Of a stretch of DNA of 64,000 bases, positions 13,035 to 57,338 are shown one piece after another. The stretch is from NCBI GenBank assembly GCA_964019135.1, contig OZ025265.1, forward strand, positions 19,753,143 through 19,817,142, given 5' to 3'. Made by a program: the position numbers and the translations under genes. Under the pieces are notes generated by a model. That model saw only the letters and a list, made by a program, of their open reading frames with translations, was not told the DNA's origin and searched no databases. Every line of letters begins with the position of its first letter. Within the stretch, counting starts at the first letter, position 1. Source of the DNA: Arenicola marina. Lineage: Eukaryota; Annelida; Polychaeta; Arenicolidae.

Positions 13035-16000
13035 ATGGATCAGAAGAAGGGAATGTAGTAGAGCATTTCACTTGTCAGATCGGATAAGCACTTTCTGTTA
13101 AGTTAATATTCTTTCATCTTTTTAAAGAAAACAATAATGTCTCAGTATTGCTATTTGGCTAAAACATGTTCAAATGACAAATCCGACATCACAACCTCCC
13201 TGCAAAGCAAATATACTTTTGGTCAAGGCAATTAACATGTCTTCCACTTGCCAGATAGGGCAAATTAGCTCAGAAATTAAGGTAATGCCTTTGGTAACTA
13301 TATATAACCATTACAAAAAATAAGTAGTGTAAAGTCATATCAGTCAAGCTGTGTAAAATAGCCAGTCACAGCCCCCCACACACATAGACTAAATGACAAA
13401 CCTTGTGATTGGTTGACTAAAACTATGTGACACTAAGATCACAAAATACTATGCAAAATGTATGCTAATATTTGAATTCATTCTGGCAACTGACAAATAT
13501 AATGGCTGCTATGCAGGTGGTGAAGGCAATAAATTACTTGCAGTTTAAACATTTATTGATCATTATTTTATCTCTAATAATAGTGACAATGATGATTTAA
13601 TGAATGATTTAGTCTGTTGCTTCGACTTTCACGCTGTGCGCAATGATAATCAAATAGGGCAGTGACTGTTTAGCGCATATGCGCCTCAGTGCTCATTTCT
13701 TTTGAATGCTTATTCGATACGGCATCTGGGCTCACGCTAGGATATGTTTTTCATTAGCCAATTTGGCTAATTCTGTGGAAAAACATTAGCCAAAATTAGC
13801 CAAATATTTGTTCGGGGATTTTCTGGTTCCATTTGTTGAAAAAAACATGAATAAAAATGTGTTTCTAGTTGACATTTTTTATTCGCCATTTTGGTGAGTG
13901 TCCAGGAAGTCCTTTTTGCCAAATCCCGAATTTTCTCGCCAAATGGCTATTGGCGAATGCTAACGCGAGCCCAGGGCATGATGAGCAAATCTAAATATAC
14001 TTGAAAATTACATCAAAATACTGATTGTTTGACAATCGGTACATCTCAGACTTGGAAACATATTTGAGGGGGTAAACTATTGTCAGACTTTGTAGTAGTT
14101 CCTTGTTATTCATCCTCTTCAACTCGCAAACTTCTGTCGGCGAAGTTGTATTTTATGAGAGGATTCACAAAGCTTGTTGACAAAGCTCTTGAGATCTTGA
14201 TTAATGTTAATGTTTGATATGAAATAAATGATAAACTTGCAATGCTTTGTTTGTAGTGAAGAGGGAGCACTGTCATATGACAGTGACTCTTCTAATAGCA
14301 GTGAAGACAGCGCTTCTGGGAAACAGGCAATAAGGAGTACTATATCAGCAGTCCAGGTAGGTTGTTAGCTACCAGTACATGATTTGAAAAATTGAACTAA
14401 ATCTAGAACATTTGATCATGATGTTTAAATATAAATTCATCTTTGTTTGGTGAAGACTTTGCTTGTGTGAAAAATGTGATCTCTTATCGGGGATATCAAC
14501 ATGTTGCAACTTAAGAACCTTTCTATGTCTGCTTCATCCTGTCATATCATTGTCCAAGGAGGTCCCTCGGCCCAGGTTTACTCTATGCTTACACAAAGGC
14601 GGCCTAAATCACCCATCCATCCATCCAGCATCTGTTACAATTTATAAATACCTGTAACTATAACAATAGAATATTTATATGATATATCTAAGGCAGCATT
14701 CTGGCTCTAAGCTACATAAAAATTCCATGTAAGTTTTTTTTAAACAGCATCTTCGAACCTTATTTGTATCATCAGCTTTATTTTTTCAGCAGCATGCAAC
14801 AACTGACATACATCCTTCAAGTTCACCAAGCAAGGGCAATAGGTAAGTAGGTAAACAACATAGGAATTTATGACCTGAAGAAAATTAATTTTAATATCCT
14901 CAGAGCTTTAATTGTTATATTGCCTTACAGTGCTGTTCAATACAGTGTTCCATACTTGGAGCTAAGCCCCGCCCATGCTTGAGTCCTTTTTAATTTTGAG
15001 TATGAAAATTAAAATGTCTAAACACTGAAATTGACTTGCTGCTTTGTTAGTGGGACATAACGCATGTGGAAGGCTTTTGTTGGCCACATGATTAGATAAA
15101 ACCTGTGAGATTTTTCTCATGTTCTCTATATACAGTAAAAGCAATCTCAAAGCCGTTGTGCATCAATATCAGTAAACGAACTGCACCTTTATATCATACA
15201 GATCCAAGTCGCCGTCCAAGAGAGCACTGACGCCCGAGTCGGGGGAACATCTGGATTCATCGGAACACAGCTCGGGGGATGAGTCTGAGAGCAGCCAGTC
15301 GCCCGGGAGACGCCGGAAAGACTTCCGAGAGAGTGAGCGAAACATCTCCCAGAACCGGCTGGTGTCTGATGCGGGTGAGGCTGGAGGTCCCAGCATCGAG
15401 CATGGGCAGAAAGCCGACCGCGACTCCAGGAGGAAACGGCGGAAATATGGCAATGAAGACGCGGGGGAGGGGTCCAAGGAGAGAGGGGTGGATAGCGGGG
15501 GGGACCGGGGGCGAGCGAGGACAGACGGCGATAGAGAGAGGGACCGATCTGGCCGCCGCGGCAGGAGAGGGAAGGATGGCGAGAGGCCAAGAGACAGATT
15601 CAGGGACGATTACCGGGAGAGGGATCGAGACGCGGATGATAATAACAGGGTCGGGGACAGATCTCGGGAGGATGCTCGGGAAAAGGATAAATCTCGCGAC
15701 GGCGAGAGAATGCGAGAACGATACAGGGGCGACGAGAGATTTCAGGATCGCGCGACCGAGCGTTACTCGCGGCGACCGCGGGATTTCCCGCGCAAGGTCG
15801 ACCGGGATGACGGGTTGAGGGACCGGGTGTCGGAACGCTACTCCAGACGCGGGGACGACATGGACCGCCGAGATAACTGGCGGGATCGGGACCGGGAGCC
15901 CCCCAGAGAGGGACGCCGGGACCGCCGAGACCAGGAAGACAAGGAAAACATGGACTCGTCCGACCCGTGAGTAAACAGACACGTGTTTTTTGTTTTGCGA

Positions 16001-19000
16001 CACCAGAATGTAGTAGATAAGTGACGTCAGAGCTGTGACGTCAGAGCTGTTATATCAGAGATTAGTGACGTCAGAGCTGTGATGTCAGAGATTAGTGACG
16101 TCAGAGCTGTGACGTCAGAGATGAGTGTGTGAATCATGTGATCGTGGGACGTGATTTGCTTTAAGGATTGCATTCTTTTGGAGCAGCGATCCTGCTGGGG
16201 GTGTACTGAACAACTGTATCTGACGGTATATCTACCGTAAATATCGATTGAACGATGAAAGGGGGATCCAGACTTAAGCAACATGGTTATATGGTTGTTC
16301 CGACAGACTTTTAACAGTTACATGTACAAAGCGAGATCGTAGTGGGATATGTGCTTGAAGTGGGATGAGAAATTTAATTTTACATGTAGTTTATAGTTAG
16401 GTTCGTTATTCGAATGATGTCATCATCTATTTGTTTAACGAGGGCGCGTGTACAATGTAGACCTGGGTGAACGGTTTTACGAACAATTCTTTCCGCATCT
16501 TGCACTTACTATGCTGAATTGTTATCTGTAATTTTGACATAATGACGTCAACAGTACATGTACAAGATGTAGTACCTACTGCTTGTCCTGATATTGTTTT
16601 TTTTCTAAATTGGAAATAAACAATGACGCTAGAGATTGACGTGCGTCCTGGCCACGTCACAATCAGCAGGTTCCGTGCTACGTCACAATCAGCATCATCC
16701 TTGCTACGTCACAATCAGCATCATCCTTGCTACGTCACAATCAGCATCATCCTTGCTACGTCACAATCAGCATCATCCTTGCTACGTCACAATCAGCATC
16801 ATCCTTGCTACGTCACAATTAGCATCATCCTTGCTACGTCACAATTAGCAGACTCGTTGCCACGTCACAATCAGCAGAATCCTTGCTTCATCACACTCGG
16901 ATCCCGCATCTAGGAAATCTCCATCCCCATTATCATTATCTCGGACAGGTTTCATGACCGATTTTACCCTTCATGTGCACACAAGTGGCCTAAAACATAA
17001 CGCATGAATGACTGTCTTGAATCGCTAATCTCGTTAATTGCTTGGGTGCGTGCGTTCACAGTGCTGCCCGAAAACGCAAAGCAGACGACACGAAGGACGC
17101 TGAAGGCGGGAAGAAAGCGCAGTCGGAAGGGGGCGCTGTGGACGACACGGACTACTTGAAGACAAAGCGCGCCAAGGCGGGGGGAGACGACTCCCTAACC
17201 ACCAAGACGGGGGGTGCCTACATCCCCCCGGCGAGACTGCGTATGATGCAGGCGCAAATCACGGACAAGGCCAGCCCCCAGTACCAGCGGCTGGCGTGGG
17301 AAGCCCTCAAGAAAAGCCTCATCGGTCTCATCAACAAGGTCAACGTCTCCAATATTAAGCTCATCGTGTTTGAGCTCTTCGCGGAGAACGTCGTTCGCGG
17401 ACGGTGAGATTTAGATTTTAAAATATTTTTTAATTTTTTTTCAAAACCGATAATACATTGAGAAATATCTTAAGTCGTCTCAATGAAAATAACATACATA
17501 TTAACTTTTTTATTTTGCTTATACGAATATATAGTGTATTTACAATAAAAAGGGCATCCGTTAAAACAATTTTTTTGACATATTGGTGCATCTCGTGTGG
17601 AAAAGAGGCTTTCTTGCGTACTTTCTTGTGAAATAAATACTATCAATGCGGCTTGCATGTTCTCCATGAATAATAGGGGCCGCCTCGATAGCTAAGTGGG
17701 CTAGAGCGCTCGCATTGATTCCTCCGGTCGCGTGAGAGCCTAACGGCACGTGGATCGGTGGTTCGAGCCTCGCTGTGGCCATGTCTGTGTGGTCGCAGGA
17801 TAAAGATCCCAGGTCTTTCTTCGTAAAGAGTAGGGGGTTACCCCCGGGTACGTGGCTCCACTCTCCCTTCTCCCGTTGACGCGATATGATCAAAAGTCTG
17901 TTAAAGCGTCCTGAATATGCAACCAACCATGAATACGATTAGTTTCGTCCTCTGCCGCCAGGGGTATCTTGGTGAGATCGATCATCCAGGCTCAGTCCGC
18001 CTCTCCGACCTTCACCCACGTCTACGCCGCCCTCGTCTCCATCATCAACTCTAAGGTTCGTTGCTCAAGGCCACGTCCCGGCAGCGCTTTAGTTTCGCAT
18101 TTTACAAGGTAATTCCGTGGTATAGTTTAAGGGTGGGAACTGTAAATAACGACGACTGGAATGAGAACGTCAAGCTGTCCAGGCGTAAATTCATTAGATA
18201 TGTCAATGTAATTTATGACGTAACTCGATATTGAACAAGTCATTAAATATGTGAATGTAATTAAGTTAAACACTTGACGAACAACTTTGTCTGCAAAAGC
18301 CACGCGTAAGTTAATTATTATTAATCGGATATATCTTTTGTATTTATTCAATAATTTAATATCTTATCTGCATCTGCATACCCTGCATCGGGTTCTCGCC
18401 TGTTGTAAGTTTAATACTGTAATCGGTGTTACAGTCTTCTATTTATTAACATGTGCTGGTTTTGTGCCTGGCAATAATATTTGTTTCGGGTTTCAGTTCC
18501 CACAGATTGGCGAATTGCTCCTCAAGAGATTGACGCTTCAGTTCAAGAAAGGATTCCGGCGCAATGACAAGGCGCTTTGTCTGTCCTCTTGTCGCTTCAT
18601 AGCCCATCTCGTCAACCAACAAGTGGTGAGTAGATTGTGACAACCTGTCTGTCCTCTTGTCGCTTCATAGCCCATCTCGTCAACCAACAAGTGGTGAGTA
18701 GAGTGTGACAACCTGTCTGTCCTCTTGTCGCTTCATAGCCCATCTCGTCAACCAACAATTTGTAAGTAAACAAAGCCGTTGGGAGTTCGCACCGCGCCTC
18801 TGCTGGAGGGATTTCATCATTATTTCATCTCAATTTTTCCATGCACAAATTAGCCTTACTATACAAAACAGTGGCCATAACACCTGGACCATCCACCCGA
18901 TTTGACATACTTTCAATATGTCATTTATACTTTGTATAGTTGCACTGTACTTTTCTACTCGATATATCAATCATTAATTAGGGCCGCATTACAATTAGGA

Positions 19001-22000
19001 CTTTAATGTGTTTTAGATGCCGCTTCAACTCGTCATATATATTATTACTATTATTAATAATTGCTCGCCAAATGTTGACCTAATTTTGGTCACGTGACCT
19101 TGCCTCCGTCCAGGCCCACGAGATTTTGTCCCTGGAGATCCTGACGCTGCTGCTGGAGACCCCGACGGACGACTCTGTGGAGGTGGCCGTGGGCTTCCTG
19201 AAGGAATGTGGCGCCAAGCTAAGCGAGGTCTCCCCGCGGGGAATCACAGGTAAGCCACGCATTCTCCGCCCTCACGGTGGCGCTCCGCTACACACAGGGC
19301 TAACGAGTATGGTCAGTGGCTGCCCGCTGGTGTTTATCAGAAAACTCTTATTCGCTCCTTACCCATACCTGATATGTAACTAGCCATCACAATATAATCA
19401 TATCTGTTAATGAGTTAATAGAAAGAAAGAACTATTATAGCGCAATGATGATTATTATTATACCTATGCAGATATTTCCCGCTAGTTGACATTAACATCC
19501 TCATTATATGCTGCTATGAAATAGTAGCATTCTCATATAATTTCACTCTAACAGTTGTAACAGCTTCCAATGTTGTGGTATATCGTACAGTTGTATATGT
19601 AACTGATTGAGAAAACAACTATGTTGTGCTTCTACGCAAAGAGTAGGGGTTTACCCCGGGGACATGGCTCCGCCCTTGCCTTCTTTCTCCCATTGAGCGG
19701 CCGCCCCGGTAGCTCAGTGGGTTAGAGAGCTCGCATTCAGCGCTCTGGCCACCTGGGAGTCTGACGCACGTGGATCGGTGGTTCGAGCCCCGCTGTGGTC
19801 ATGTCTGTCTGGTCGCAGGATAAAGATGTCCTTTTTCGCAAAGAGTAGGGGGTTACCCCCGGGGATATAGCTCCACTCTTCCTTCCTTCTCCCATTGACG
19901 CGATATGACCAAAAGTAGTTAAAGCGTCCTGAATATACAACCAACTGCAACCAATCCTTTACGGCCAGTTCATGCTCGTATTTGTGGCTCAGTCCAATTT
20001 AGCCTTCATACGCCAAAGTGGCCTTAAACAACAATTTCAGTTTCATTTGTGGCTCCACTGGTTCAGTTTACTAATTAATGATTTTTAATTTATTAATTTT
20101 GTACTGATTAGTTGTCTGACTCTCTGTTTGGCAGCCATCTTTGATCGGCTGCGGTCGACTCTTCACGAGGCCCTTATTGACAACAGGGTGCAGTACATGA
20201 TCGAGGTCGTGTTTCAAGTACGGCGCGACGGGTTCAAGGTGAGGTCAAGGTCACATAGCGGTATTTCCTCCTTATTTTAGTAGGTACGTTAAAAATTGAT
20301 TTTTTTCTTCGATGGAAGAAATTGATTAAATTGAAGTATTGGCTACTAAATCAACACCCGTCACGGTTGTTATATGACTATGAATAATATGAATGTTGCT
20401 TAGGTAACTTGCATAACGGGATTTTGGACTTCACGATATTTGGGTGTATTCTTTATTATAGGATCATCCGGCTGTGATGGAAGACCTTGACCTTGTGGAG
20501 GAGGAGCATCAGTTCACACACATGTTGACTCTGGAGGACGCTGTGAATGCAGAGGAAATGCTGAGTAAGTGCCCTTAGTTCCCCAAGTTCGTAAAGCGGA
20601 CACTGGGGCCAAGCCGTGGCTCAGTGGGTGGCGCGTTCGGCTACTGTCCAGTGTCCTCTGCAAGATCAGTTCAAGCGGTCGGTACCTGGTTCAACTATCT
20701 ACGTGTTTGTGCAGGATGAAGATCCCATGTCTCTCTTCGCAAGGGGTTTACTACTCCCAGAGATGTGGCTCATTTCTTTCTTGACCCGTACCAGTGTGGC
20801 GCTATGACTCGAGGCTATGATTGAGGCTCACCTACTACACCATTCACGTTCCTACTTTGATGCCTTGCTAAATGTGGCTTGGTAGAGTATTATGAATACA
20901 GTACATTGTCCACTGCCACAGTATATTTCCCCTCAAAAAGACCTTCTCTATTCACAGAGTACTCCACAAGCCCCAGCGGCCGGCGATAACGCCGGCTACT
21001 CGTATAACTTGCGCCGCCTACTTTTTTAATATTAAATATGTTAAAAGGTAAAAAAAAAAAGACAATGTGCCGGCTACTCCAAATGCTTTGTCTGTCTACT
21101 CTGTAAAGTGTGGAGCACCCTGTCTATTCTATACTATAGGTATTGGCTAGGTGCCCACACTTATATATAAGATGGATTCTCCACGACCCCGGTACATTGA
21201 AGTGATAAAATCTGTGATCTGCCGATGGAAGTTGCCCTGTTCAAAATGTTCACATGAAATACTGAGGCACTGACCCACACATGACTGAACAAGGTGTGGG
21301 GACCCTTGGCATTCTGCCCTCGCCTCGCGAAAAAGATCTTGTCAAAATCGGGACAAAACATTATTTATCGCCCCCTTTCGAATAAGCGCCCTTTTGAAAC
21401 GGCCCCCGGGCAATTCTATACTAGAAAAAAATAACCGCCCGGGCGCTTATTCGAGCAACTAAAGTATAAGTTACTAGGATAATTGCCCCTGCCCTGACAT
21501 CTTTCCCCGATAGCAGGCCTCACCCCCACCTCTAGTGCTTGAACATTGGGGCCGAATCATTTTTTTAACGCACATATTATTAGTTTCCCCGTGCTACCTG
21601 TGATAATTGATTCGTTATTAGAAGGCTACTGCCAGTCTATGCACAAACGCGCCCTAAAACACCAATCTCTCTAAACTAGCTTAGGATTTATAATGTGTAA
21701 TAGTGGTGGCCAATTAATTCCTTGCGACCTCAATATTTACTATTTGTTCTTCCAGATGTCTTCAAATTGGATCCTGATTATCTGGAGACTGAAGAAAAAT
21801 ACAAAGCTATAAAGAAAGGTGGGTTTCGTATCGTTGGTGACAAGATGATGAAACGTTAAGCTGTTAAGCACGAGACAAGTGAGGCATGATTATACACTGT
21901 GTTGTAACGACATCTCAACAAACATCCTTACGTTTTATGGATATCCCATACAGCAATAACATCACAACGCATTCGTTAAATTTTACGATAATATAATTAA

Positions 22001-25000
22001 CTTTGGACAGTGCCTACTGTGCATTAATGGGAAATGACATTTTGTCATGTTATAGTAGCAATCCTTGCCTTTCAATATGTTAGTAGCAAGTAGGTTGTTG
22101 ATCTGTATGGTCTATATTTGCATCTAAGCTACATTCGCTATGCTCTACCTTTGAATATGTTCGCATTAAGTGGGCTTTTGATATATTTGGCGATATATAT
22201 TTAAATTGCAATCGCCGTTAATGTTTCTGACATACTTTGTACTGTACTTTTGCTGCACACCCGGCCCAATAACTAAAGTACGCTCTCCTTTTCTTTGACT
22301 TTTCATCTTTTGTTAGTTTCTGGCTTGATTTGGGGGAGATATTCATATTAAATGGACGTCTGGGGAACTTTTTCTTTATCCAGATATCCTGGAGGAGGAC
22401 AGCTCTGATGGGTCTGGCTCTGGATCGGGTTCCGGGTCTGGATCTGACAGCAGTGACGAGGAGAGTGGAGGTAAGGTCAAGGACGACGTGGCGTCTTGCT
22501 CAGTCAACCCTGGAGTCACCTTCAGTATAGTCAGGGAGAGGGTCACTTACGGCTAAGTATAGTCAGGGAGGGGGTCACCCTGTGGCCTAGTGGGTGATTG
22601 TAGTCAGGGAGGGGGTCACCATGTGGCCTAGTGGGTGATTATAGTCAGGGAGGGGGTCACCCTGTGGCCTAGTGGGTGATTGTAGTCAGGGAGGGGGTCA
22701 CCATGTGGCCTACTGGGTGATTATAATCAGGGAGGGGGTCACCATGTGGCCTAGTGGGTGATTATAATCAGGGAGGGGGTCACCATGTGGCCTAGTTGGT
22801 GATTATGGTCAGGGAGGGGGTCACCATGTGGCCTAGTGGGTGATTGTAGTCATGGAGGGGGTCACCATGTGGACTACTGGGTGGATGGTGAGCTCCCCTT
22901 GTGTGGTCAATGAATAAGGTGAACTAGGAGGCTGCGTAGCTTGTTCTTATCAAACGGTAAATTATAATTCCAATGGAAACACCATTTTAATTCATGATTT
23001 ATTTCTTATATCGGGACGTAATACCCGGAATTTTTGTTACTCTAATAGCAATTTTCTCTCCGGTTTAATGAAATAAACCCGGAAATAATCATAATGGTAT
23101 ATTGTACAATGAATTTTTCGCAGAAAATAGCTGGATACATTTTTCGATATTTTTCTGTGAGAAATTTCTGTATGAGCAGCTTTAATCTTTCTGCTGCAAC
23201 TGTAAATATATACCGTAATTTTGCTGTGCAACTCTGCGCAACTCTTTAACTTTCCCCAAACCCCCGTCTTACCACTGCCACTCTCCCAGAAGAGGGCGCT
23301 GCCGCCGCGAAGACTACCATCATCGACCAGACGGAGACGAACATGGTGGCGTTCCGCCGCATCGTCTACCTGACCATCCAGTCGAGCCTGGACTTCGAGG
23401 AGTGCGCCCACAAGCTGCTCAAGATGGAGATCAAGCCCGGACAGGAGGAGGAGCTCGGCAACATGATCCTCGACTGCTGCGCCCAGCAGCGGACATACGA
23501 GAAGTTCTTTGGCCTTCTGGCGCAGGTGAGAGCTCACCCCCCCCCCCCTCCCCCCAACACACACACACACACATACACACAGACAGACAGACCCCGCGCC
23601 GCACACAGACATAGGCCCGCCAGACCCCACTCCACACATACAGACATTCCGCACCCCACACACAGACGCCCCACGCCCCAACCCTCACACACAGACACAA
23701 ACCCCGCACCCCCACCCCCCCCCCCCCCCCCACACACACACACATATTGACCGCACCCCACCGCACCCTATACACACAGACTGACCCCACCACCCCACCC
23801 CCCCCCCCCCACCACGCTTCACCGTATCTCACACCGTGACCGTTCGTTGCCGTTTCAGCGGTTCTGCATGCTGGAGAAGCGCTACGTGCTACCCTTCCAG
23901 AGGATCTACGAGGAGCAGTACACGACCTGCCACCGGCTGGAGACCAACAAACTCCGCAACGTCGCCAAGTTTTTCGCCCACCTGCTGCACACCGACGCCA
24001 TCTCCTGGGAGGTGAGAGGGCCGCCCCGATAGCTCAGTGCGTTACAGCGCTCGCACTGATCGCCCTGGCCACCTGACAGCCTAAACGGCACCTGGTTCGG
24101 TGGTTCGAGTCCCGCTGTGGTCAGGTCTGTCTGGTTGCAGGGTAAAGATCCCACACCCTATTTTGCCGACCGTTTCTCAATCAATGCAATGACCCGGCAT
24201 TGAAATCTGCCGGTAAAATAGCTCCGAACGGTCCATGGCCGGCAATACAGTGACGTCATGAACAACAGCCAATGAGCCACGAGAGCCGGCAAAATAGCCC
24301 CACACAATCGGTAGCCGGTCACGATCAAATATCCACTGCCTAAATTTCGTGGTTGAGTGTTAGTGCGCTCAACTCGGGTGTGACCGGTGACGCTGGGCTT
24401 CAGAGTACCAGGTAACAGGTTCGGTGCGTATATTCGAAAGCTCAACATATTTTCATTTGTTAATTAATTGTCCTCCTTAATTCATTGTGTGACAGCAGAA
24501 ATTTAGTCCACGTTAGATGAGTGACGATGAAAGTCGATATCGCCATGGGGACAATAGTGAAGCCAGCTGAAAATCGGTTTCTGTACTATTCTCCGTCCGC
24601 CAGGTGGTGCAAATTATCCACCTGAATGAAGACGAAACCACGTCGTCAAGTCGTATCTTCATCAAGATCCTCTTCCAAGAGCTGTCGGAGTACATGGGTC
24701 TGCCAAAGCTACATGACAGACTCCTCGACCCGTAAGTACAAGATCTTTCACATGTGTATTCGTTGTTGATAACTTCGCAAAATAAACTTCTACAAAGAAA
24801 GAAACATATATACTATTCAATAAATCGTTGAACGGTTCACTTATATAAAATGATGAACACTGAAATATTAGATATATAGCGGGTCACGTGCTTGGTTTTC
24901 AGGACGCTGCAGATGCATTTTGGTGGTCTCTTCCCGCGTGATAACCCCAAGAACACGAGATTCGCCATCAACTTCTTCACGTCTATCGGACTGGGCGGCC

Positions 25001-28000
25001 TGACGTGAGTACACCTGTCTGACCACCCTCTGGGGTTCTCACGTCTATCGGGCTGGGCGGCCTGACGTGAGTACACCTGTCTGACCACCCCCTGGGGTTC
25101 TCACGTCTATCGGACTGGGCGGCCTGACGTGAGTACACCTGTCTGACCACCCCCTGGGGTTCTCACGTCTATCGGACTGGGCGGCCTGACGTGAGTACAC
25201 CTGTCTGACCACCCCCTGGGGTTCTCACGTCTATCGGACTGGGCGGCCTGACGTGAGTACACCTGTCTGACCAACCCCTGGGGTTCTCACGTCTATCGGA
25301 CTGGGCGGCCTGACGTGAGTACACCTGTCTGACCGTCCCCTGGGGTTCTCACGTCTATCGGACTGGGCGGCCTGACGTGAGTACACCTGTCTGACCACCC
25401 CTGGGGTTCTCACGTCTATCGGACTGGGCGGCCTGACGTGAGTACACCTGTCTGACCACCCCCTGGGGTTCTCACGTCTATCGGACTGGGCGGCCTGACG
25501 TGAGTACACCTGTCTCACCACCCCCTGGGGGTCTCACGTCTATCGGACTGGGCCGCCTGACGTGAGTACACCTGTCTGACCACCCCCTGGGGTTCTCACG
25601 TCTATCGGACTGGGCGGCCTGACGTGAGTACACCTGTCTGACCACCCCCTGGGGTTCTCACGTCTATCGGACTGGGCGGCCTGACGTGAGTACACCTGTC
25701 TGACCACCCTCTGGGGTTCTCACGTCTATTGGACTGGGCGGCCTGACGTGAGTACACCAGTCTGACCACCCCCTGGGGTTCTCACGTCTATCGGACTGGG
25801 CGGCCTGACGTGAGTACACCTGTCTGACCACCCCCTGGGGTTCTCACGTCTATCGGACTGGGCGGCCTGACGTGAGTACACCTGTCTGACCACCCCCTGG
25901 GGTTCTCACGTCTATCGGACTGGGCGGCCTGACGTGAGTACACCTGTCTGACCACCCCCTGGGGTTCTCACGTCTATCGGACTGGGCGGCCTGACGTGAG
26001 TGCACCTGTCTGACCACCCCCTGGGGTTCTCACGTCTATCGGACTGGGCGGCCTGACGTGAGTGCACCTGTCTGACCACCCCCTGGGGTTCTCACGTCTA
26101 TCGGACTGGGCGGCCTGACGTGAGTGCACCTGTCTGATCACCCCCTGGGGTTCTCACGTCTATCGGACTGGGCGGCCTGACGTGAGTACACCTGTCTGAC
26201 CACCCCCTGGGGTTCTCACGTCTATCGGACTGGGCGGCCTGACGTGAGTACACCTGTCTGACCACCCCCTGGGGTTCTCACGTCTATCGGACTGGGCGGC
26301 CTGACGTGAGTACACCTGTCTGACCACCCCCTGGGGTTCTCACGTCTATCGGGCTGGGCGGCCTGACGTGAGTACACCTGTCTGACCACCCCCTGGGGTT
26401 CTCACGTCTATCGGGCTGGGCGGCCTGACGTGAGCACACCTGTCTCACCACCCTCTGGGGTTCTCACGTCTATCGGACTGGGCGGCCTGACGTGAGTACA
26501 CCTGTCTGACCACCCCCTGGGGTTCTCACGTCTATCGGGCTGGGCGGCCTGACGTGAGCACACCTGTCTCACCACCCTCTGGGGTTCTCACGTCTATCGG
26601 ACTGGGCGGCCTGACGTGAGTACACCTGTCTGACCACCCCCTGGGGTTCTCACGTCTATCGGACTGGGCGGCCTGACGTGAGTACACCTGTCTGACCACC
26701 CCCTGGGGTTCTCACGTCTATCGGACTGAGCGGCCTGACGTGAGTACACCTGTCTGACCACCCCTGGGGTTCTCACGTCTATCGGACTGGGCGGCCTGAC
26801 GTGAGCACACCTGTCTGACCACCCCCTGGGGTTCTCACGTCTATCGGACTGGGCGGCCTGACGTGAGTACACCTGTCTGACCACCCCCTGGGGTTCTCAC
26901 GTCTATCGGACTGGGCGGCCTGACGTGAGTACACCTGTCTGACCACCCCTGGGGTTCTCACGTCTATCGGACTGGGCGGCCTGACGTGAGTACACCTGTC
27001 TGACCACCCCCTGGGGTTCTCACGTCTATCGGACTGGGCGGCCTGACGTGAGCACACCTGTCTGACCACCCCCTGGTGTTCTCACGTCTATCGGACTGGG
27101 CGGCCTGACGTGAGCACACCTGTCTGACCACCCCCTGGGGTTCTCACGTCTATCGGACTGGGCGGCCTGACGTGAGCACTCCTGTCTGACCACCCCCTGG
27201 GGTTCTCACGTCTATCGGACTGGGCGGCCTGACGTGAGTACACCTGTCTGACCACCCCCTGGGGTTCTCACGTCTATCGGACTGGGCGGCCTGACGTGAG
27301 CACACCTGTCTGACCACCCTCTGGGGTTCTCACGTCTATCGGACTGGGCGGCCTGACGTGAGTACACCTGTCTGATCACCCCCTGGGGTTCTCACGTCTA
27401 TCGGACTGGGCGGCCTGACGTGAGTACACCTGTCTGACCACCCCTGGGGTTCTCACGTCTATCGGACTGGGCGGCCTGACGTGAGTACACCTGTCTGACC
27501 ACCCCTGGGGTTCTCACGTCTATCGGACTGGGCGGCCTGACGTGAGCACACCTGTCTCACCACCCTCTGGGGTTCTCACGTCTATCGGACTGGGCGGCCT
27601 GACGTGAGTACACCTGTCTGACCACCCCCTGGGGTTCTCACGTCTATCGGACTGGGCGGCCTGACGTGAGTACACCTGTCTGACCACCCCCTGGTGTTCT
27701 CACGTCTATCGGACTGGGCGGCCTGACGTGAGTACACCTGTCTGACCACCCCCTGGGGTTCTCACGTCTATCGGACTGGGCGGCCTGACGTGAGTACACC
27801 TGTCTGACCACCCCCTGGGGTTCTCACGTCTATCGGACTGGGCGGCCTGACGTGAGTACACCTGTCTGACCACCCCTGGGGTTCTCACGTCTATCGGACT
27901 GGGCGGCCTGACGTGAGTACACCTGTCTGACCACCCCCTGGGGTTCTCACGTCTATCGGACTGGGCGGCCTGACGTGAGCACACCTGTCTGACCACCCCC

Positions 28001-31000
28001 TGGGGTTCTCACGTCTATCGGACTGGGCGGCCTGACGTGAGTACACCTGTCTGATCACCCCCTGGGGTTCTCACGTCTATCGGACTGGGCGGCCTGACGT
28101 GAGTACACCTGTCTGACCACCCCTGGGGTTCTCACGTCTATCGGACTGGGCGGCCTGACGTGAGTACACCTGTCTGACCACCCCTGGGGTTCTCACGTCT
28201 ATCGGACTGGGCGGCCTGACGTGAGCACACCTGTCTCACCACCCTCTGGGGTTCTCACGTCTATCGGACTGGGCGGCCTGACGTGAGTACACCTGTCTGA
28301 CCACCCCCTGGGGTTCTCACGTCTATCGGACTGGGCGGCCTGACGTGAGTACACCTGTCTGACCACCCCCTGGGGTTCTCACGTCTATCGGACTGGGCGG
28401 CCTGACGTGAGTACACCTGTCTGACCACCCCCTGGGGTTCTCACGTCTATCGGACTGGGCGGCCTGACGTGAGCACACCTGTCTCACCACCCTCTGGGGT
28501 TCTCACGTCTATCGGACTGGGCGGCCTGACGTGAGTACACCTGTCTGACCACCCCCTGGGGTTCTCACGTCTATCGGACTGGGCGGCCTGACGTGAGCAC
28601 ACCTGTCTCACCACCCTCTGGGGTTCTCACGTCTATCGGACTGGGCGGCCTGACGTGAGTACACCTGTCTGACCACCCCCTGGGGTTCTCACGTCTATCG
28701 GACTGGGCGGCCTGACGTGAGCACACCTGTCTCACCACCCTCTGGGGTTCTCACGTCTATCGGACTGGGCGGCCTGACGTGAGTACACCTGTCTGACCAC
28801 CCTCTGGGGTTCTCACGTCTATCGGACTGGGCGGCCTGACGTGAGCACACCTGTCTCACCACCCTCTGGGGTTCTCACGTCTATCGAACTGGGCGGCCTG
28901 ACGTGAGTACACCTGTCTGACCACCCCCTGGGGTTCTCACGTCTATCGGACTGGGCGGCCTGACGTGAGCACACCTGTCTCACCACCCTCTGGGGTTCTC
29001 ACGTCTATCGGGCTGGGCGGCCTGACGTGAGTACACCTGTCTGACCACCCTCTGGGGTTCTCACGTCTATCGGACTGGGCGGCCTGACGTGAGTACACCT
29101 GTCTGACCACCCTCTGGGGTTCTCACGTCTATCGGACTGGGCGGCCTGACGTGAGCACACCTGTCTCACCACCCTCTGGGGTTCTCACGTCTATCGGGCT
29201 GGGCGGCCTGACGTGAGTACACCTGTCTGACCACCCTCTGGGGTTCTCACGTCTATCGGACTGGGCGGCCTGACGTGAGTACACCTGTCTGACCACCCTC
29301 TGGGGTTCTCACGTCTATCGGACTGGGCGGCCATGCATTATTCGATCAATTGTCATTACCTTTGTAACATACATTACTCGATCAATTGTCATTACCTTTG
29401 TAACATACATTACTCGATCAATTGTCATTACCTTTGTAACATACATTACTCGATCAATTGTCATTACCTTTGTAACATACATTGCTCGATCAATTGTCAT
29501 TACATGTGTAACATACATTACCCCTTCTGTGTTTTCAGGGACGAGCTGCGCGCCTTCTTGAAGACGATGCCGAAACCGGCGCCCATCATCCCCCTCGCCT
29601 CCTCCTCGTCCTCCTCCTCCTCCTCCTCCTCCTCTTCGTCATCCAGTGGCTCCTCCTCCGACTCTTCCTCCAGCTCCAGTGGCAGCGGCTCCTCCTCGTC
29701 ATCCTCCTCATCCAGCAGCAGCTCAGGTGAGAACGACCGCTTGGCGGCGCTGTTCAGTGCAGTCCCTACCATGGTTGACCCCAGGTTAATAAAGGCAGTA
29801 CAATGTGGGGATCAGGTTGATAACTACTGTCACTCCACTCTAATACTGTACGGGGCCGCCCCGATAGCTCAATGGGTTAGAGCGCTCGCAGTGAGCGCTC
29901 TGGCCATCTGAGAGCCTAACGGCACGTGGGACGGTGGTTCGAGCCCCGCTGTGGTCATGTCTGTGTGGTCGCAGAATAAAGATCCCATGTCCTTCTTCGC
30001 AAAGAGTAGGGGGTTACCCCGGGGGATATGGCTCCGCTCTTCTCTTCCTTCTTCCATTGACGTGATGTTACCAGAATTGGTTAAAGCGTCCTGAATACAG
30101 CCTACAACCAACCAAAGTCCTACCAAAGTCTACTTGTCCTCGTCTTTGCCGACCAATTCCGGCGATGTCGCTGGTGTAGTGACGCACTAGACCGTAGAGC
30201 AATAAGTCCCGGGTTCGAATCCGGGCCCGGGCCTGCGTCCGTCAGCGTCCCGGAAGGTTCTTTGGCTCACTGTAGCCCTTGTGTGCATAAAGCGGCCTAA
30301 ATACAAACTCCTACCATGTCACACCTCGGTCTGACGTCCCGAGGAGTATCCCGAGGCAATGACTGCTGGGGACGTGCCACTGGAAAACGGTGTCATTTTT
30401 GTGCATTATGGTACGCCAATGAGTCCTAACTTATGCACTTTTGGTACATGCATGGGTCTACTTTGGGGGTGGGGGGGGCAGATGGTACGCCAATAGGTCC
30501 GCTCTATTTTTAAGTTGGAGAGGGGCCGATCTAAGAATTTCGTCGTAGTAGTATTTACCAAAGACATGCAATTTTCTCAGCTTGGTACGTGGAAGGGCCT
30601 GAACTTTACACAGTTCTTGGTACTTGGATGGGTAAGATCTTGAGGCTCCCAGAGGCACCTTCTTATAATTTGTTGCTTCTAGTTATATATATATAGCTTC
30701 AAAGGTTTATTAATGTCGAACATACGCCTTACATCTTGCGTGGATGATTTATAGCAAGACCGCATGACTTAATTTCACTTCTGCGTCTTATATAACGCGC
30801 GTGCACGTCAGCACAATCAGCTGATATCGTAGTTTCATATGAAGGGAGCAGTAAAACCTTACCACCCTTTCACAATTCATTTTGCTTGGCCGCATATCGG
30901 GCCTTGATTACCGTGTGTATTCGCGTCGTTCCAGATTCCTCGTCCGACTCCGACGGCGGTCCGCGACGGAAGAAGAAGACGAAGACCAAGGTCAAGGCCA

Positions 31001-32766
31001 AGGTCAAGACTGAAGGTCGCCCCCACCAGATGGCGCCGGGGGGCCCGAGACGGACTGAGGGTGAGGGTGACACGGACCCGCGTCGTCGTGGGAGAGATGC
31101 CGACGATCGCGCGGAGGTCCGAACCGGCGGACGGGACAGGAGCGCCCCGCCGCGGTCAGGACGCCGCGAGAGGGACGCGCGCTATAACGGAGACGCCACG
31201 GAGGAGCACGTGGCTAGTGACGTCACAAATGGACGCCAGTCGCGGCGCCGGGACGAGCGTCGGGGGGACGCGGCCCCCGTCGCACGTGCCCCGGAAGGCC
31301 GGGTCCCTGGCAAACGGGGAACGAGTCGCCGCGATGCCGCCGATAGCAGTTACGACTCCGGCCGCCAGAACGCCGATAGCAGTTTCGACGCCGACCGCCA
31401 GAGGGCGGGTCGCAAGACGTCGTCGGATCGAAGTCCGGACGCCGCCGCCGCCGCCGCCGCCGAGGCGACTCGGCGTCGCCGGAAGCAGCGCGATGACGTC
31501 ACGGGTGGGAGTAGTGACAAGAGCCGCGACGCTAGGAATGGTCGCGATCGTGAAGGTCACGATACTGAAGGTCGTGGTGGTGGGGAGCACGGCCAGAGCG
31601 CTCGTGGTCGTGACGCCGTGGCCGAACGCGGTCGCGGGAGGGAGGGAAGGGATGAGGGTGAGGGGGAAGACTCTTCTGGCCGAGAAAGGCAGGGGAAGAA
31701 AAACCGTCCAGAATTCGACAGGGACAGGGAGAGGGAGAGGGACCGGGAGCGGAAGGACAACCGTCCAGACCGACAGAGGGAAGAGAGGGGTGATCGCCCG
31801 GTAGGCGACAAATACAGGGAGAGAAACGACAATGATAGGGGCAGGGAGGGGAGGGACGGGAGGGAGGTGAGGAGGGAACGCCCCGAAAACGACCGGGCGG
31901 ACGAGAGGACCGAAAGGAGAGACGGGTCAGGGAGGGGAGGGGGAGGGGGAGCGGGGAGGGGAGACCCCGACCGCGGCAACAGAGATCGGAACAATAGTTA
32001 CAACAACCGAGGTCGTGAGGATAGGGATCGGAGAAAAGACCTGTCCGATGACTATGGTGATGATGATGATGACCTTGACGATGAACGCCGCCTGGACCTT
32101 GACCTCGAGTCCGGCCACCCACGCAGCCGGCTGGAGGCGATCCAGCAGGAGTTAAACAAAGTGCAGGAGCTGATTAACAAGCGCCAACAGATGAAGGAAG
32201 GAGGCGACAAGCGTAAGAAGAACAAGAAGAAGAAATCTCGACGAGGCGAGCCGGAGCGCGACACGGACGGCGAGGACGCTGCCTATGTCGACAGGGAGAG
32301 GGGGAGGGGGAGGGAGAGGGATCGAGGCGGGCCGCGGGGTGAGCCCCAGACCCGCAGCCGTGCCCCCGAGAATCACTCTCAGGAGTCGGACGACAACCCG
32401 GACGCCGATAGAAGAAAACGAGAGGAGCCGAGAAAGAAGAAGAAAAGCGGTAAAGACAAAAGGGTCAAGGCGCACGTCGACAGCTCCAGTGAGAGCGATG
32501 GCGAGGAGGGAAGGGAGAGTCGCAAGGCGGCGGAGAAGGGAGGACGTGGGCGGCGAGGGGAGGAGCTGAATGGTGACGTCAGAGCGGGCGTCCGCGGCGC
32601 GCCGAGGGACGCCGCTTTGTCATCGGATGACGTCACTGTCAGCCCCAGGAAGGAGAAAATCCGGCAGAGGACAAGGCGGTCCTCCGGGGAGAGGGAAATA
32701 GAAGTGGAGAGAAGAGAGAAAGACAAGAGGGACCGGCAGCGAAGGAGAAGTCGCGACAGGCGATGA
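13035..32766 (+). CDS. CWC22: CWC22, spliceosome-associated MIF4G/MA3 protein (18 coding exons)
   Basis: CWC22 binds eIF4A3 and brings it to the spliceosome, so it is needed for pre-mRNA splicing and exon junction complex assembly in the nucleus. Exons: 13035-13054, 14257-14356, 14790-14842, 15202-15966, 17062-17403, 17962-18055, 18497-18625, 19114-19249, 20135-20238, 20462-20564, 21756-21818, 22384-22470, 23290-23525, 23859-24011, 24604-24731, 24903-25004, 29539-29726 and 30935-32766. All phases agree and the total is 4,635 nt (1,544 residues; human has about 900). Exons 2-4 encode a disordered, charged N-terminus. Exons 5-11 encode MIF4G ([45 protein letters not shown]). Exons 13-16 encode MA3 ([50 protein letters not shown]). 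Exon 17 is poly-Ser and exon 18 encodes 610 residues rich in R, D, E and K, longer than the human tail. The first exon is the weak point: its donor (AT|gtagta) is poor, but it gives ATG and the right phase. Confidence 0.94.
13726..13974. mobile_element. 249-bp MITE with 5-bp target duplication, CWC22 intron
   Basis: The ends are inverted copies: CTGGGCTCACGCTAGGAT on the left against CTGGGCTCGCGTTAGCAT read inward from the right. GGCAT flanks both sides (13721-13725 and 13975-13979). The interior has smaller inverted pieces around ATTAGCCAA and CGCCAAAT and no open frame. It is a non-autonomous DNA transposon; the superfamily is not determined. Confidence 0.75.
14575..14625 (+). repeat. SINE 3' tail relic in CWC22 intron
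   Basis: CTTACACAAAGGCGGCCTAA is followed by ATCC units (CATCCATCCATCC). It matches the tail of the SINE at 30163-30312 (GTGCATAAAGCGGCCTAAAT), so this is a 5'-truncated or decayed copy ending in a short simple repeat. Confidence 0.5.
16021..16125 (+). repeat. Minisatellite of GTGACGTCAGAG units, CWC22 intron
   Basis: Several head-to-tail units alternate GTGACGTCAGAGCTGT with GTCAGAGATTA. Five of the seven repeat boxes contain TGACGTCA, the full CRE palindrome; one has GATGTCAG and one TATATCAG. It starts about 55 bp after the donor of exon 4 (15966). Confidence 0.85.
16660..16905 (+). repeat. 26-bp minisatellite with TACGTCACAAT core, CWC22 intron
   Basis: About nine tandem units share GCTACGTCACAATCAGCA. 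Six units in the centre are nearly identical and the edges are degenerate. Each carries ACGTCA, a CRE half-site. It lies in the same intron as the array at 16021-16125. Confidence 0.9.
17676..17928 (+). mobile_element. tRNA-derived SINE (family 1, copy A) with target duplication
   Basis: The head GATAGCTAAGTGGGCTAGAG is tRNA-like (A box) and GGTTCGAGCC is the B box. The body includes AGAGTAGGGGGTTACCCCCG and the end is CAACCAACC. A 9-bp direct repeat, CCATGAATA, flanks it (17664-17672 and 17927-17935), overlapping the tail by two bases. Open frames across it are spurious. Confidence 0.88.
18578..18770 (+). repeat. 68-bp triplication of the end of CWC22 exon 7 with its donor site
   Basis: The last 45-50 bp of exon 7 plus the first part of the intron are present three times in tandem. 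Donor sites fall at 18626, 18694 and 18762, exactly 68 bp apart. The first two are GTG|gtgagtag and the third TTT|gtaagtaa. Only the first donor keeps the reading frame into exon 8 (NQQV-AHEIL, human NQNVAHEVL); reading past it meets TGA within six codons. Confidence 0.93.
19629..19948 (+). mobile_element. tRNA-derived SINE (family 1, copy B) preceded by a partial copy
   Basis: A full copy runs from about 19698 (GGCCGCCCCGGTAGCTCAGT) to about 19948 (CAACCAACTGCAACC), with the B box GGTTCGAGCCCC. Directly before it, 19629-19697 is the 3' half of another copy (CGCAAAGAGTAGGGG to CTCCCATTGA). The two are therefore joined head to tail as a partial dimer. Confidence 0.82.
20605..20825 (+). mobile_element. 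tRNA-derived SINE of a second family, CWC22 intron
   Basis: The head CCGTGGCTCAGTGGGTGGCG is an A-box-like tRNA start and GGTTCAACTA a decayed B box. Its 3' half (CAGGATGAAGATCCCATGTC, CTCTTCGCAAGGGGTTTACT) matches the 3' body of family 1, so two tRNA heads share one body. It begins about 40 bp after the exon 10 donor. Confidence 0.65.
21376..21454. repeat. Short inverted repeat, CWC22 intron
   Basis: TCGAATAAGCGCCC at 21379-21392 is mirrored by GGGCGCTTATTCGA at 21441-21454, with a further CCCCGGG/CCCGGG pair between. It looks like the end of a foldback element or a small MITE. No target duplication was made out. Confidence 0.6.
22540..22890 (+). repeat. 41-bp minisatellite, about 8 copies, CWC22 intron
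   Basis: Units contain TCAGGGAGGGGGTCACCATG followed by GGCCTAGTGGGTGATT. Variation is limited to a few bases (CCCTG/CCATG, TGTAG/TATAG/TATAA). It starts about 70 bp after the exon 12 donor (22470). Confidence 0.92.
22891..23289 (+). other. Rest of CWC22 intron 12
   Basis: AT-rich intron sequence ending in a pyrimidine-rich acceptor (CACTCTCCCAG). It includes TGTATGAGCAGCTTTAA (23171-23187), a short motif that recurs at about 44780 and, weakly, near 500 and 45130, suggesting a degenerate dispersed repeat. No exon is seen. Confidence 0.45.
23526..23830 (+). repeat. C-rich and CA-rich low-complexity intron
   Basis: The intron between CWC22 exons 13 and 14 consists of C runs, (CA)n runs and degenerate CACACAGAC units. 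A run of C followed by (CA)n lies at about 23711-23743. Open frames on both strands here (proline/threonine/histidine on plus, glycine/valine/cysteine on minus) are composition artefacts. Confidence 0.9.
24018..24152 (+). mobile_element. tRNA-derived SINE (family 1, copy C), 3'-truncated, 6 bp from a splice donor
   Basis: GGGCCGCCCCGATAGCTCAG begins six bases after the exon 14 boundary at 24011 (GGGAG|gtgaga). The B box GGTTCGAGTCCC is intact. Similarity stops after GGTAAAGATCCCA. What follows (24153-24430) is unrelated sequence with GCCGGCAAAATAG-type repeats. Confidence 0.82.
25005..29332 (+). repeat. 62-bp minisatellite, about 70 copies, each with the exon 16 end and 5' splice site
   Basis: The unit begins with the intron start (GTGAGTACACCTGTCTGACC), continues through CACCCCCTGGGGTTCTCACG and ends with the last bases of exon 16 (TCTATCGGACTGGGCGGCCT, then GAC). 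Length is 62 bp, with some 61-bp units. Exon 16 ends at 25004 and the next GGCCTGAC|gtgag junctions follow every 62 bp to about 29270. About 4,328 bp gives some 70 copies. Variants include gtgagc for gtgagt and CTCACC for CTGACC. Blocks are nearly identical at long range (26594-26884, 26779-27069 and 27706-27996), pointing to recent unequal exchange. It fills almost the whole of intron 16. Confidence 0.97.
29333..29520 (+). repeat. 36-bp minisatellite, 5 copies, just before CWC22 exon 17
   Basis: Units contain TCGATCAATTGTCATTACCT followed by TTGTAACATACATTAC. The array abuts the 62-bp array on the left and stops about 18 bp before the acceptor of exon 17 (gttttcag at 29538), so intron 16 is almost entirely tandem repeat. 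Confidence 0.93.
29852..30113 (+). mobile_element. tRNA-derived SINE (family 1, copy D), CWC22 intron
   Basis: Head GGGGCCGCCCCGATAGCTCA, B box GGTTCGAGCCCC, body AAAGAGTAGGGGGTTACCCC, and end TACAACCAACCAAAG. It is close to full length and in sense with the host gene. Confidence 0.85.
30163..30312 (+). mobile_element. tRNA-derived SINE of a third type, CWC22 intron
   Basis: The B box CGGGTTCGAATCCGGGCCCG is perfect. The A box region (GTAGTGACGCACTAGACC) is weaker. The tail GTGCATAAAGCGGCCTAAAT recurs at 14575, 39603 and about 4168 with different bodies, so the tail is shared between SINE types, as expected when one LINE mobilises several SINEs. Confidence 0.7.
30313..30934 (+). other. Rest of CWC22 intron 17
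   Basis: Degenerate units around CTTGGTACATGCATGGGTC and GGTACGCCAATGAGTCC repeat loosely between 30408 and 30640. The remainder is AT-rich up to the acceptor CGTTCCAG at 30934. No exon is seen. Confidence 0.5.
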
Positions 32767-39444: not shown

Positions 39445-39602
39445 CTGTAATATATACACGGTGCATAGTAATCGTTGGTCTGTTAAGCCATGAAGGATCT
39501 GTAATATCACCCCTGGGCGTCAAAATGCGTTACGAAATATCCCTTTTAGAATCCAAGATGGCCGTCTTCAGGGGAACAAAGGGGGGAAATAAAAATGAAA
39601 TA

Positions 39603-41320: not shown

Positions 41321-41829
41321 CAGACACGGCGATCGAGGCACAGTGTGAAACGGTACATTTGCTCCTATATGGCTCAGACCGTGTGGTCTGACGTTTTGGG
41401 CCCACACGTCTTGTCGACAGCATTACATGCAGTATCTTCCTATTGACGCGTCAGAAATGATAAACATCGATAAGCATCGTTGTTATGCACCCCACGACGG
41501 TTCGCCCTCAAGGCTCATGAACACTTGGGTCGCTTTGCCAGACATGAATTAGAAAGTCAATGTCATTGACGACACGCAGACCATGTGTTAAAGTGAGCGA
41601 CCACGTTCCATGGGTCCCCGCCCACACAACATGTAAGAGCTCTAATACATGCAGGTCCTACAGCTCCAAGGACTAACGTAGCAGCTTGGGCAAACGCCGC
41701 ACAAGAGCGACAAGGTCACATCAGGCAAACCCTTCTCGGTATTCAAGCCAATGAATTCATAGAGCATTCCATCAATATTTACAAAGTAGCCATAAAGCCG
41801 CTGCCGCTCTGCGCGTAACCACGACCCTT

Positions 41830-49160: not shown

Positions 49161-50343
49161 TTATAACTCACAACATTGCATGCTGCTGGACAGAATATAT
49201 ACGTTTTTTAATTATGTAAGGTATAGGTATGTAACGGTCTGAAAATAAGATTATTTGCCCTTTTTCGATACTACGTGCTCTATTGCACAGACGCGTCAAT
49301 ATAGAAATTAAGTTTATCAAGTGACCAAGCTAGAAATGAAGGCTTTTTGAGGGCTATATAGGCCTGTGTGACGGCGGGGGCCGGCTTGGTCTACCAATTC
49401 GGTCAAAATGGTGATCCATCTAGCCGAGGCCATTAGGTATGGTTTGACTCACTGCTGCATGTATTAGTCAAATTAATTAATAGCGAGCTCTAGCGAGCTA
49501 TTATGGTAACGTATACGAAGGGAAAAAAAAATAAATAAAAAAATAAATAAAAAATAAATTAATTAATTAATTAAAAAAATAAAAAATAAAAAATTGGCTT
49601 GCCATACATTGCCATACTATACGATTCAAAAAACGTCGGCCGCGCGTCATGGCCGAGAATGAAGGCGATAATAGGAGCCATTTCAGAAAGTTCCAGACTA
49701 TATAACAGAATATACGCCTAAAATTATTATTTTATTGCTTTATTTGTCTGAATAATGAAGGATTATGATTATGAAAACTATAAAACATTGATTACATTTT
49801 TATTCACCATTTCTCCCGGCTACTAGCGGAACGCCCTCTGTTGGGACATTGATGCTAACATCCGGAAAATGCAAACCCTGGCGAACGCGTTCGAAACTCG
49901 ACTCAAACTTTTGTTTGTTTTTGCTGTTTGGCATAGATCTAAGTGATAAGAAATTTAGACAAGGTGTGTATTATTTTTGAAAGTCATCTGTTCATTTCAA
50001 CTGATTGCTATGACAGTTTTCATGAATATTTCAGCCCCTGGTTGTCAATTTTTTAATTCAGACAAGTGACCAAGTCGAGTGTCGTCTTCGCGTCGGTCTG
50101 TCAACAGGTCAAACTGTCGTGTCACTGTCAACCCTGGTCAAATTAGACAAGTAACTGACTTAGTCGTTGATTTGTTGACGTCTACTTGTCAGTACGTTTT
50201 GTTGAGATTGAAGGTTGGTATTTTGATATAAAACCATCTAACTTGACAGCTCTGGCTAATTTTGATCTTGAACTAAAGTTTTAGTCCAAGCTAAAACAAG
50301 TCAGATAAAGTCTGCATGTTTACCTGTCAGCCTGTTTTAGGCA

Positions 50344-50562: not shown

Positions 50563-50572
50563 GTGCATAGAT

Positions 50573-57221: not shown

Positions 57222-57338
57222 GCCATAGATATCATATGGATATGGTCAGGGAGACAGGAATGTCTGATGAAATCAATCTGGACTGGTTGAAAGAACAAGC
57301 ATAGCTGTGGTTTACACCAGTGTCAGTGACCCTGACAG

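What the first reader, a model, noticed from the sequence alone, without database searches (positions are those of the whole stretch)
25005..29332. Seventy tandem copies of a 5' splice site: exon 16 end amplified into a 4.3-kb intron minisatellite
Seen: the 62-bp unit contains the last 29-33 bases of CWC22 exon 16, the donor GAC|gtgagt and 29 bp of intron. It repeats about 70 times directly after the real exon end. Known: 5' splice sites compete, and U1 binding also suppresses premature polyadenylation. Inferred: the intron presents about 70 near-identical donors plus partial exon context to the spliceosome, in a gene whose own product is a splicing factor. The true exon needs upstream sequence absent from the copies, so copies lack an acceptor. 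They could still act as decoy or alternative donors that add about 62 bases (frame-breaking) per unit. Auto-regulation is an attractive but untested idea.
Basis: partly seen in the sequence, partly recalled or inferred. Interest (0 to 1): 0.9.

Follow-up and report, generated by a model that had tools for sequence, protein, structure and literature searches.

The report
Splice-donor minisatellite in CWC22 intron
The end of one protein-coding exon, together with its splice signal, has been copied about seventy times into the intron that follows it; this is an extreme case of a repeat type already described in lancelets, and it gives a natural test of how cells choose among identical splice sites.

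Summary
A 62-bp unit (28 nt of exon end, GAC|GTGAG, 34 nt of intron) repeats head to tail from 24977 to 29332. It carries 70 intact donors: one authentic (25005) and 69 copies, 54 GTGAGT and 16 GTGAGC. The gene is CWC22: 17 modelled exons, 14257-32766, one open frame; the core matches human CWC22.

The same gene has a second, smaller donor-spanning array (68 bp x 2.7, 18578-18758). A 36-bp array fills the rest of the big intron up to the polypyrimidine tract.

The architecture is known: amphioxus 'mirage' minisatellites span exon-intron boundaries, reportedly without disturbing splicing (PMC3087553, PMC3902484). In human IFI6 downstream repeat donors are used. The host here is probably a cephalochordate; no call tested that.

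Any copy-donor product, or a retained intron, meets an in-frame TGA one nucleotide past the exon, whatever the number of units; none of 12 poly(A) hexamers lies in the intron. A donor-hiding hairpin failed its shuffle control.

Best reading: an unstable mirage minisatellite, spliced out from the first donor and mostly tolerated. Autoregulation has no evidence. Seventy copies in a splicing-factor gene remain notable.

The parts
14257..32766 (+). CWC22 coding region as modelled: 17 exons, stop at 32764-32766; the 5' end (start codon) was not sought and may lie upstream
   Evidence: Spliced exons give one open frame of 1537 aa from exon 1 to the stop; a 538-aa core aligns to human CWC22 5mqf_T, E 5.9e-252; MIF4G and MA3 domains. 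No RNA seen
24903..25004 (+).
   Evidence: Encodes ..[18 protein letters not shown], identical to human CWC22 over those residues
24977..29332 (+). 62-bp minisatellite, 70 units with a donor plus a 24-nt partial unit; unit = 28 nt exon end + 34 nt intron start
25005..25010 (+). Authentic 5' splice site GTGAGT (donor 1 of 70)
29275..29280 (+). Last donor copy (donor 70); would make a 264-nt intron
29332..29521 (+). 36-bp minisatellite, 5.3 copies, filling the intron up to the polypyrimidine tract; holds four TTGTAAC branch-point-like words (one mismatch to TNCTRAC, a recalled consensus), 2.25 expected per 207 nt, so not clearly above chance
29537..29538 (+). AG acceptor of the big intron (intron 15, 25005-29538, 4,534 nt)
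29539..29726 (+). Exon 16 of this model, begins GGACGAGCTG (..T|DELRAFLK)
18578..18758 (+). Second donor-spanning array: 68-bp unit (48 nt exon end + 20 nt intron), two full copies and a third with a diverged tail that still has GTAAGT
18497..18625 (+). Exon 6 of this model, source of the second array; the first copy ends in the GTG (Val) that human CWC22 also has at this place

Best explanation
It is a boundary-spanning ('mirage'-type) minisatellite. A short tandem duplication of the exon-15 end with its donor arose in the germ line (inferred), then grew to 70 units by unequal exchange or slippage (inferred from near-identical units and a recurring block). All growth lies on the intron side, since copies inside the reading frame would be lost (inferred). 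In the pre-mRNA the upstream exon is recognised as a unit from its acceptor at 24902 to the nearest donor at 25005, so donor 1 is joined to the acceptor at 29538 and all 69 copies leave as intron (inferred from exon definition, recalled, and from published reports on other mirages). A small leak to donors 2-4 is likely; those transcripts stop at once (shown by sequence) and should be cleared by NMD (inferred). The array has no dedicated function; it is a tolerated, unstable passenger.
For: Unit and copy count. The exon end is deeply conserved (human identical), so the exon is the source and the intron copies are derived. Mean pairwise unit difference is 3.0%, with 22 unit types; one 5-unit block (ICCBA) recurs at units 39 and 50 (2.7% of 5,000 shuffles of unit order have such a 5-unit repeat; for 4 units 12%, so weak). 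A second donor-spanning array lies in the same gene. Published mirages in amphioxus have the same anatomy: Adh3 data and globin RT-PCR suggest no interference with regular splicing, and the PGBD5 authors infer the same for theirs. Exon length would be 102 nt with donor 1, 164/226/288 with donors 2-4, 4,372 with donor 70. Donor intactness needs no selection: variable columns are 5 of 28 exonic against 11 of 34 intronic, p 0.25.
Against: No RNA data were seen. Donors 2-4 would give exons of ordinary size, so complete silence is not expected. In human IFI6 two downstream repeat units are used as donors. By cells rather than columns the exon part varies much less than the intron part (10 of 1960 v 67 of 2380); copies are related, so this is no test, but it leans towards constraint. 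The host was not identified by any search. Boundary-spanning is not enriched in this gene: 2 of 9 arrays, 0.79 expected, P 0.18.
Confidence: 0.7

Rival explanations
1. The copies are used at a real rate as alternative donors, as in human IFI6, making a ladder of mRNAs that all carry the same early stop and are degraded; the array is a splicing load rather than a regulator.
For: All 70 donors are intact, 54 with the authentic hexamer; donors 2-4 give exons of 164-288 nt; IFI6 uses two downstream repeat donors. The globin mirage paper itself says that signals in the copies could be used as cryptic sites.
Against: Mirage reports in amphioxus see or infer no interference with splicing. 16 of 70 donors have +6 C, which should pair less well with U1 (recalled rule). 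No transcript data here.
Confidence: 0.15
2. Autoregulatory sink: high CWC22 changes donor choice so that copy donors are used, giving stop-codon transcripts that need the exon junction complex (which CWC22 helps to load) for decay; copy number tunes the loop.
For: Every copy-donor product and the retained intron stop one nt after the exon, after the MIF4G and MA3 domains and before the SR-rich tail. CWC22 is listed as EJC-associated and is among known pathway components with Z above 1 in an NMD RNAi screen; that paper's reference list holds a title saying that CWC22 escorts eIF4AIII to spliceosomes.
Against: An immediate stop follows from any phase-2 GTGA/GTAA donor: 5 of the 16 introns of this gene (2, 3, 4, 14, 15) have it. 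No conservation could be tested. Minisatellites of this kind sit in unrelated amphioxus genes.
Confidence: 0.06
3. Array length is inflated by the assembly; the genome holds far fewer units.
For: PGBD5 boundary repeats in lancelet differ between two assemblies (2 v 7 and 3 v 6 copies), and the BflGb6 mirage appeared aberrantly assembled in the draft genome.
Against: 22 unit types in a non-periodic order, with one-base deletions in 8 units, do not look like looped copies of one read; the second array suggests the process is real in this gene.
Confidence: 0.09

Closest known systems
Amphioxus 'mirage' minisatellites (Adh3, globins BflGb6/BflGb9, PGBD5, others)
   Different: 70 units here against 6 and 3 (two BflGb6 haplotypes) and 2-7 (PGBD5) in the passages I read; Adh3 copy numbers were not seen. 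Gene is a splicing factor; two such arrays in one gene.
IFI6 (6-16) minisatellite with multiple splice donors, human
   Same: Minisatellite in which repeat units supply donors downstream (PMC4526556, passages; Turri et al. 1995 seen only as a title in reference lists).
   Different: In IFI6 downstream donors give mRNAs for different isoforms; here 62 is no multiple of 3 and any use ends in the same immediate stop. The IFI6 unit size (12 bp) is recalled, not read.
TERT intron 6 VNTR (38-bp repeats that alter splicing by RNA pairing)
   Same: Intronic tandem array whose copy number can change splicing (PMC3948165, abstract and outline seen).
   [quoted passage not shown] here the units hold the junction itself. 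Pairing of these units with distant pre-mRNA was not tested; pairing that closes the donors is not above shuffled units.
Intron gain by duplication of proto-splice sites (Rogers model, as described in PMC3087553)
   Same: Duplication of a piece that holds a splice signal.
   Different: Here only the donor side is duplicated; no AGGT occurs in the array, so no new exon or intron is expected from it as it stands.

Membership tests
Mirage minisatellite | Repeat unit spans an exon-intron boundary | tested here: met
   28 nt of exon + 34 nt of intron per unit
Mirage minisatellite | First copy is the authentic gene boundary | tested here: met
   Frame and human homology run through donor 1 to exon 16; no RNA seen
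Mirage minisatellite | Units homogenised inside, edge units apart | tested here: inconclusive
   Units 1 and 70 are type D, the commonest type is A (25 of 70), but D also occurs at units 12, 62 and 67
Mirage minisatellite | Length instability between alleles or cells | not testable with these tools
   Needs reads from several individuals
Mirage minisatellite | Regular splicing is kept | not testable with these tools
   Needs RNA
Mirage minisatellite | Host is a cephalochordate | not testable with these tools
   No genome held for the window; the tools describe no collection of animal genomes
IFI6-type donor minisatellite | Repeat units carry splice donors | tested here: met
   70 of 70 full units
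IFI6-type donor minisatellite | Downstream donors give mRNAs that encode different protein isoforms | tested here: not met
   All copy-donor products share the in-frame TGA one nt past the exon, so they could give at most one truncated protein; use in RNA is not testable
Poison-exon / NMD autoregulation | Alternative use brings a premature stop | tested here: met
   TGA one nt past the donor, but 5 of 16 introns of this gene share an immediate stop
Poison-exon / NMD autoregulation | Alternative use responds to the gene's product | not testable with these tools
   Needs an experiment
TERT-type VNTR acting by RNA pairing | Repeats pair with distant pre-mRNA and shift splicing | not tested
   Only local pairing within and next to the array was computed
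Donor-hiding hairpin in each unit (own hypothesis) | Donors less accessible than in shuffled units | tested here: not met
   187 of 300 shuffled units are as closed or more so

The most novel reading that the evidence does not exclude
A copy-number-tunable brake on a splicing factor: the 69 decoy donors compete with the authentic one, every loss makes the same truncated, NMD-marked message, and because CWC22 itself helps to mark such messages the array length sets CWC22 output. Since mirages are unstable, cells or individuals would differ in this setting.
Probability: 0.05. Interest if true: 0.85.

Novelty: new member of a known kind. Interest (0 to 1): 0.45.

Why it matters
How the spliceosome picks one of several equal 5' splice sites has been studied with engineered duplicates (recalled). 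Here nature offers 70 in a row, with 43 of 70 donors marked by a unique upstream 150-mer (14 of 70 by a unique 62-mer), so long cDNA can often tell which donor was used. Exon definition predicts donor 1 (102-nt exon, 4,534-nt intron); intron definition, which favours short introns, predicts donor 70 (264-nt intron). The two predictions lie at opposite ends of one array. It would also show how large a mirage can grow inside a gene for a core splicing factor, if the array length holds.

Tried and rejected
Hairpin hypothesis: each unit has an 8-nt inverted repeat (CTCACGTC / GACGTGAG) whose 3' arm covers the donor, and in the minimum-energy RNA folds of the three single-unit stretches tried the donor is paired. 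Both arms are invariant: 0 of 16 columns vary against 16 of 46 others, p 0.006, columns chosen after the fact. In favour too: 9-nt openness of copies (median 6.7e-4) and of the authentic donor (3.8e-4) is below the median of the gene's 15 other donors (2.7e-3), and for the 6-nt intron side of the donor the authentic site (9.8e-3) is more open than the copies (median 1.8e-3); these two had no shuffle control. Against: RNA folding energy is mostly no better than shuffles (z 0.20 authentic end, 0.53 one unit, 0.34 two units; one unit with a G variant -1.80; 0.63 for exon 15 plus following units), and shuffled units kept around the same donor are mostly as closed or more (187 of 300). As single-stranded DNA four units fold better than shuffles (z -2.22, 4 of 200), which might help expansion but proves nothing.

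Selection on copies: variable columns 5 of 28 exonic v 11 of 34 intronic, p 0.25; variant cells 10 of 1960 v 67 of 2380, not independent; no claim made.

Enrichment of arrays at junctions: nine arrays were picked by hand from the TRF rows in the gene (period 20 or more; rows with shorter periods and overlapping rows dropped); 2 of 9 span a junction, 0.79 expected, P 0.18. A cruder test within 5 kb found a close copy (28 of 40 or more) for 2 of 16 donors and 0 of 16 acceptors, but 28 of 120 random 40-mers of the window also have one, so it is uninformative.

U1 protection from premature polyadenylation: none of 12 hexamers in the intron. Branch-point array at the 3' end: 4 hits v 2.25 expected, not pursued. 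The donor scan of other units printed empty strings through a script fault and is not used. Rfam and tRNA scans: nothing. A search for papers on competing donors found none with 4 of 5 terms; 'mirage minisatellite' as a phrase found none; 'LanceleTn' none.
Full report
What is there. The window holds a CWC22 gene on the + strand. I joined 17 exons by their splice signals (14257-32766); they give one open frame of 1537 residues ending at 32766. A 538-aa core aligns to human CWC22 (5mqf_T, residues 123-652, E 5.9e-252) and has MIF4G and MA3 domains. No start codon was sought and no RNA was seen.

The array. TRF reports 24977-29332, period 62, 70.4 copies, 97% matches. Counting donors directly gives 70: one authentic at 25005 and 69 copies, the last at 29275, with spacings 61 x 62 bp and 8 x 61 bp; 54 are GACGTGAGT and 16 GACGTGAGC. 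After the last full unit comes a partial unit of 24 nt, then a 36-bp array (29332-29521, 5.3 copies), then 17 nt up to and including the acceptor AG at 29538. So the 4,534-nt intron is almost wholly tandem repeat. The exon part encodes residues identical to human CWC22, so the exon is the source and the intron copies are derived.

How the array grew. There are 22 distinct units among 70, mean pairwise difference 3.0%. The commonest type (A) makes 25 of 70; the 8 units of type B, with three linked changes, all lie between units 42 and 68; units 1 and 70 are both type D, which is also found at units 12, 62 and 67. One block of five units recurs 11 units apart; 2.7% of 5,000 shuffles of unit order show such a five-unit repeat, and 12% a four-unit one. 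This fits growth by unequal exchange or slippage with copying of blocks, but weakly. No reads or alleles were available.

A second array in the same gene. At the end of exon 6, a 68-bp unit (48 nt exon end, GTG|GTGAGT, 20 nt intron) is present in two full copies and a third with a changed tail that still has GTAAGT (18578-18758). The first copy keeps the Val that human CWC22 has at that place. Of 16 donors and 16 acceptors in the gene, 2 donors and 0 acceptors have a close copy within 5 kb. Against random placing of nine hand-picked arrays in the gene this is not a significant excess: 2 observed, 0.79 expected, P(>=2) 0.18.

What use of a copy would do. Intron 15 is phase 2, and the exon frame reads CTG ACG TGA, so the first stop comes one nt after the exon end. 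Any product that uses donor 2 to 70, or keeps the intron, stops at the same codon, after the MA3 domain and before the SR-rich tail. This is not special: 5 of the 16 introns of the gene have a stop one nt past the donor. The array offers no obvious acceptor: no AGGT, 2 of 72 AG outside GTGAG, at most 65% pyrimidine before an AG. None of 12 poly(A) hexamers occurs in the intron, so the idea that U1 sites guard against early polyadenylation has little to act on here.

Why the first donor should win. With donor 1 the exon is 102 nt; with donors 2, 3 and 4 it is 164, 226 and 288; with donor 70 it is 4,372 and the intron only 264 nt. If exons are recognised as units, donor 1 is favoured and the first few copies may leak. 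If introns are recognised as units, donor 70 is favoured. The other 15 introns of this gene are 171-1208 nt, which does not settle the matter. Published work on boundary-spanning repeats in amphioxus reports (Adh3 data, globin RT-PCR) or infers (PGBD5) that regular splicing is kept, while noting that the copies could serve as cryptic sites.

What is known. 'Mirages' are minisatellite-like tandem duplications of exon-intron boundaries in amphioxus: Adh3 (10-72-bp units), globins BflGb6 and BflGb9, and other loci; they show length instability, somatic in Adh3 (PMC3087553, passages). Lancelet PGBD5 has 60-bp and 108-bp imperfect repeats that include splice sites, with 2 or 7 and 3 or 6 copies in two assemblies, and the authors name Adh and TnC as other cases (PMC3902484, passages). 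The original Adh paper and the IFI6 minisatellite paper are not held; I saw only their titles in reference lists. In IFI6 two downstream repeat units serve as donors (PMC4526556, passages). So the kind is known. I saw no published case of this size, but the Adh3 copy numbers were out of reach and only nine paper searches were made.

The host. No call names it. The CWC22 core is close to human (840 bits), the window is rich in tandem repeats (48 TRF rows) and holds a tRNA-like dispersed element, and the boundary arrays match what is described in lancelets; I think a cephalochordate likely (about 0.75), by inference only.

Function. The autoregulation idea is attractive because CWC22 is listed as EJC-associated and scored in an NMD screen (PMC5896957, passages). 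But nothing in the sequence asks for it: the stop is a by-product of phase and donor, and such repeats occur in unrelated genes. Donor copies need no selection to be intact at 3% divergence (5 of 28 exonic v 11 of 34 intronic columns vary, p 0.25), though by cells the exon part varies less (10 of 1960 v 67 of 2380; copies are not independent). A hairpin that would hide the donors failed its shuffle control (187 of 300 as closed or more), though its arms are invariant (chosen after the fact) and the array donors are predicted less open than the median of the gene's other donors.

Verdict. A real, large, boundary-spanning minisatellite of a known kind, most likely a tolerated passenger. Its size, its place in a splicing-factor gene and a second such array in the same gene make it a good natural test of donor choice.

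Noticed in passing
41826-43990: A second large minisatellite, 53-bp unit x 41 (also a 267-bp higher-order period); many units contain the word GTAAGA (read). No gene was placed on it.
   Followed up: no
49476-53477 and 56287-60286: A direct duplication of about 4 kb in several blocks, the larger ones 91-96% identical, copies about 6.7-6.8 kb apart.
   Followed up: partly
38453-39529 (-): An open frame of 359 aa with a DegT/DnrJ/EryC1/StrS aminotransferase domain (E 2.7e-25); from recall an unusual family for an animal gene, origin not examined.
   Followed up: no
6033-6350 (-): A frame with an AAA_16 P-loop ATPase match (E 5e-10).
   Followed up: no
17675, 19695, 24020, 29852, 37700-37951 (-), 41052: Six copies of a tRNA-like dispersed element, head GATAGCTCAGTGGG and box GGTGGTTCGAGCC (motif hits; five of them align to each other by BLAST at about 81-87%). 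Four lie in CWC22 introns 4, 7, 13 and 16. ARAGORN calls no tRNA.
   Followed up: partly
29332-29521: The 36-bp array reaches the polypyrimidine tract, so the branch-point region of the same intron may also have been amplified; four TTGTAAC words, 2.25 expected.
   Followed up: partly
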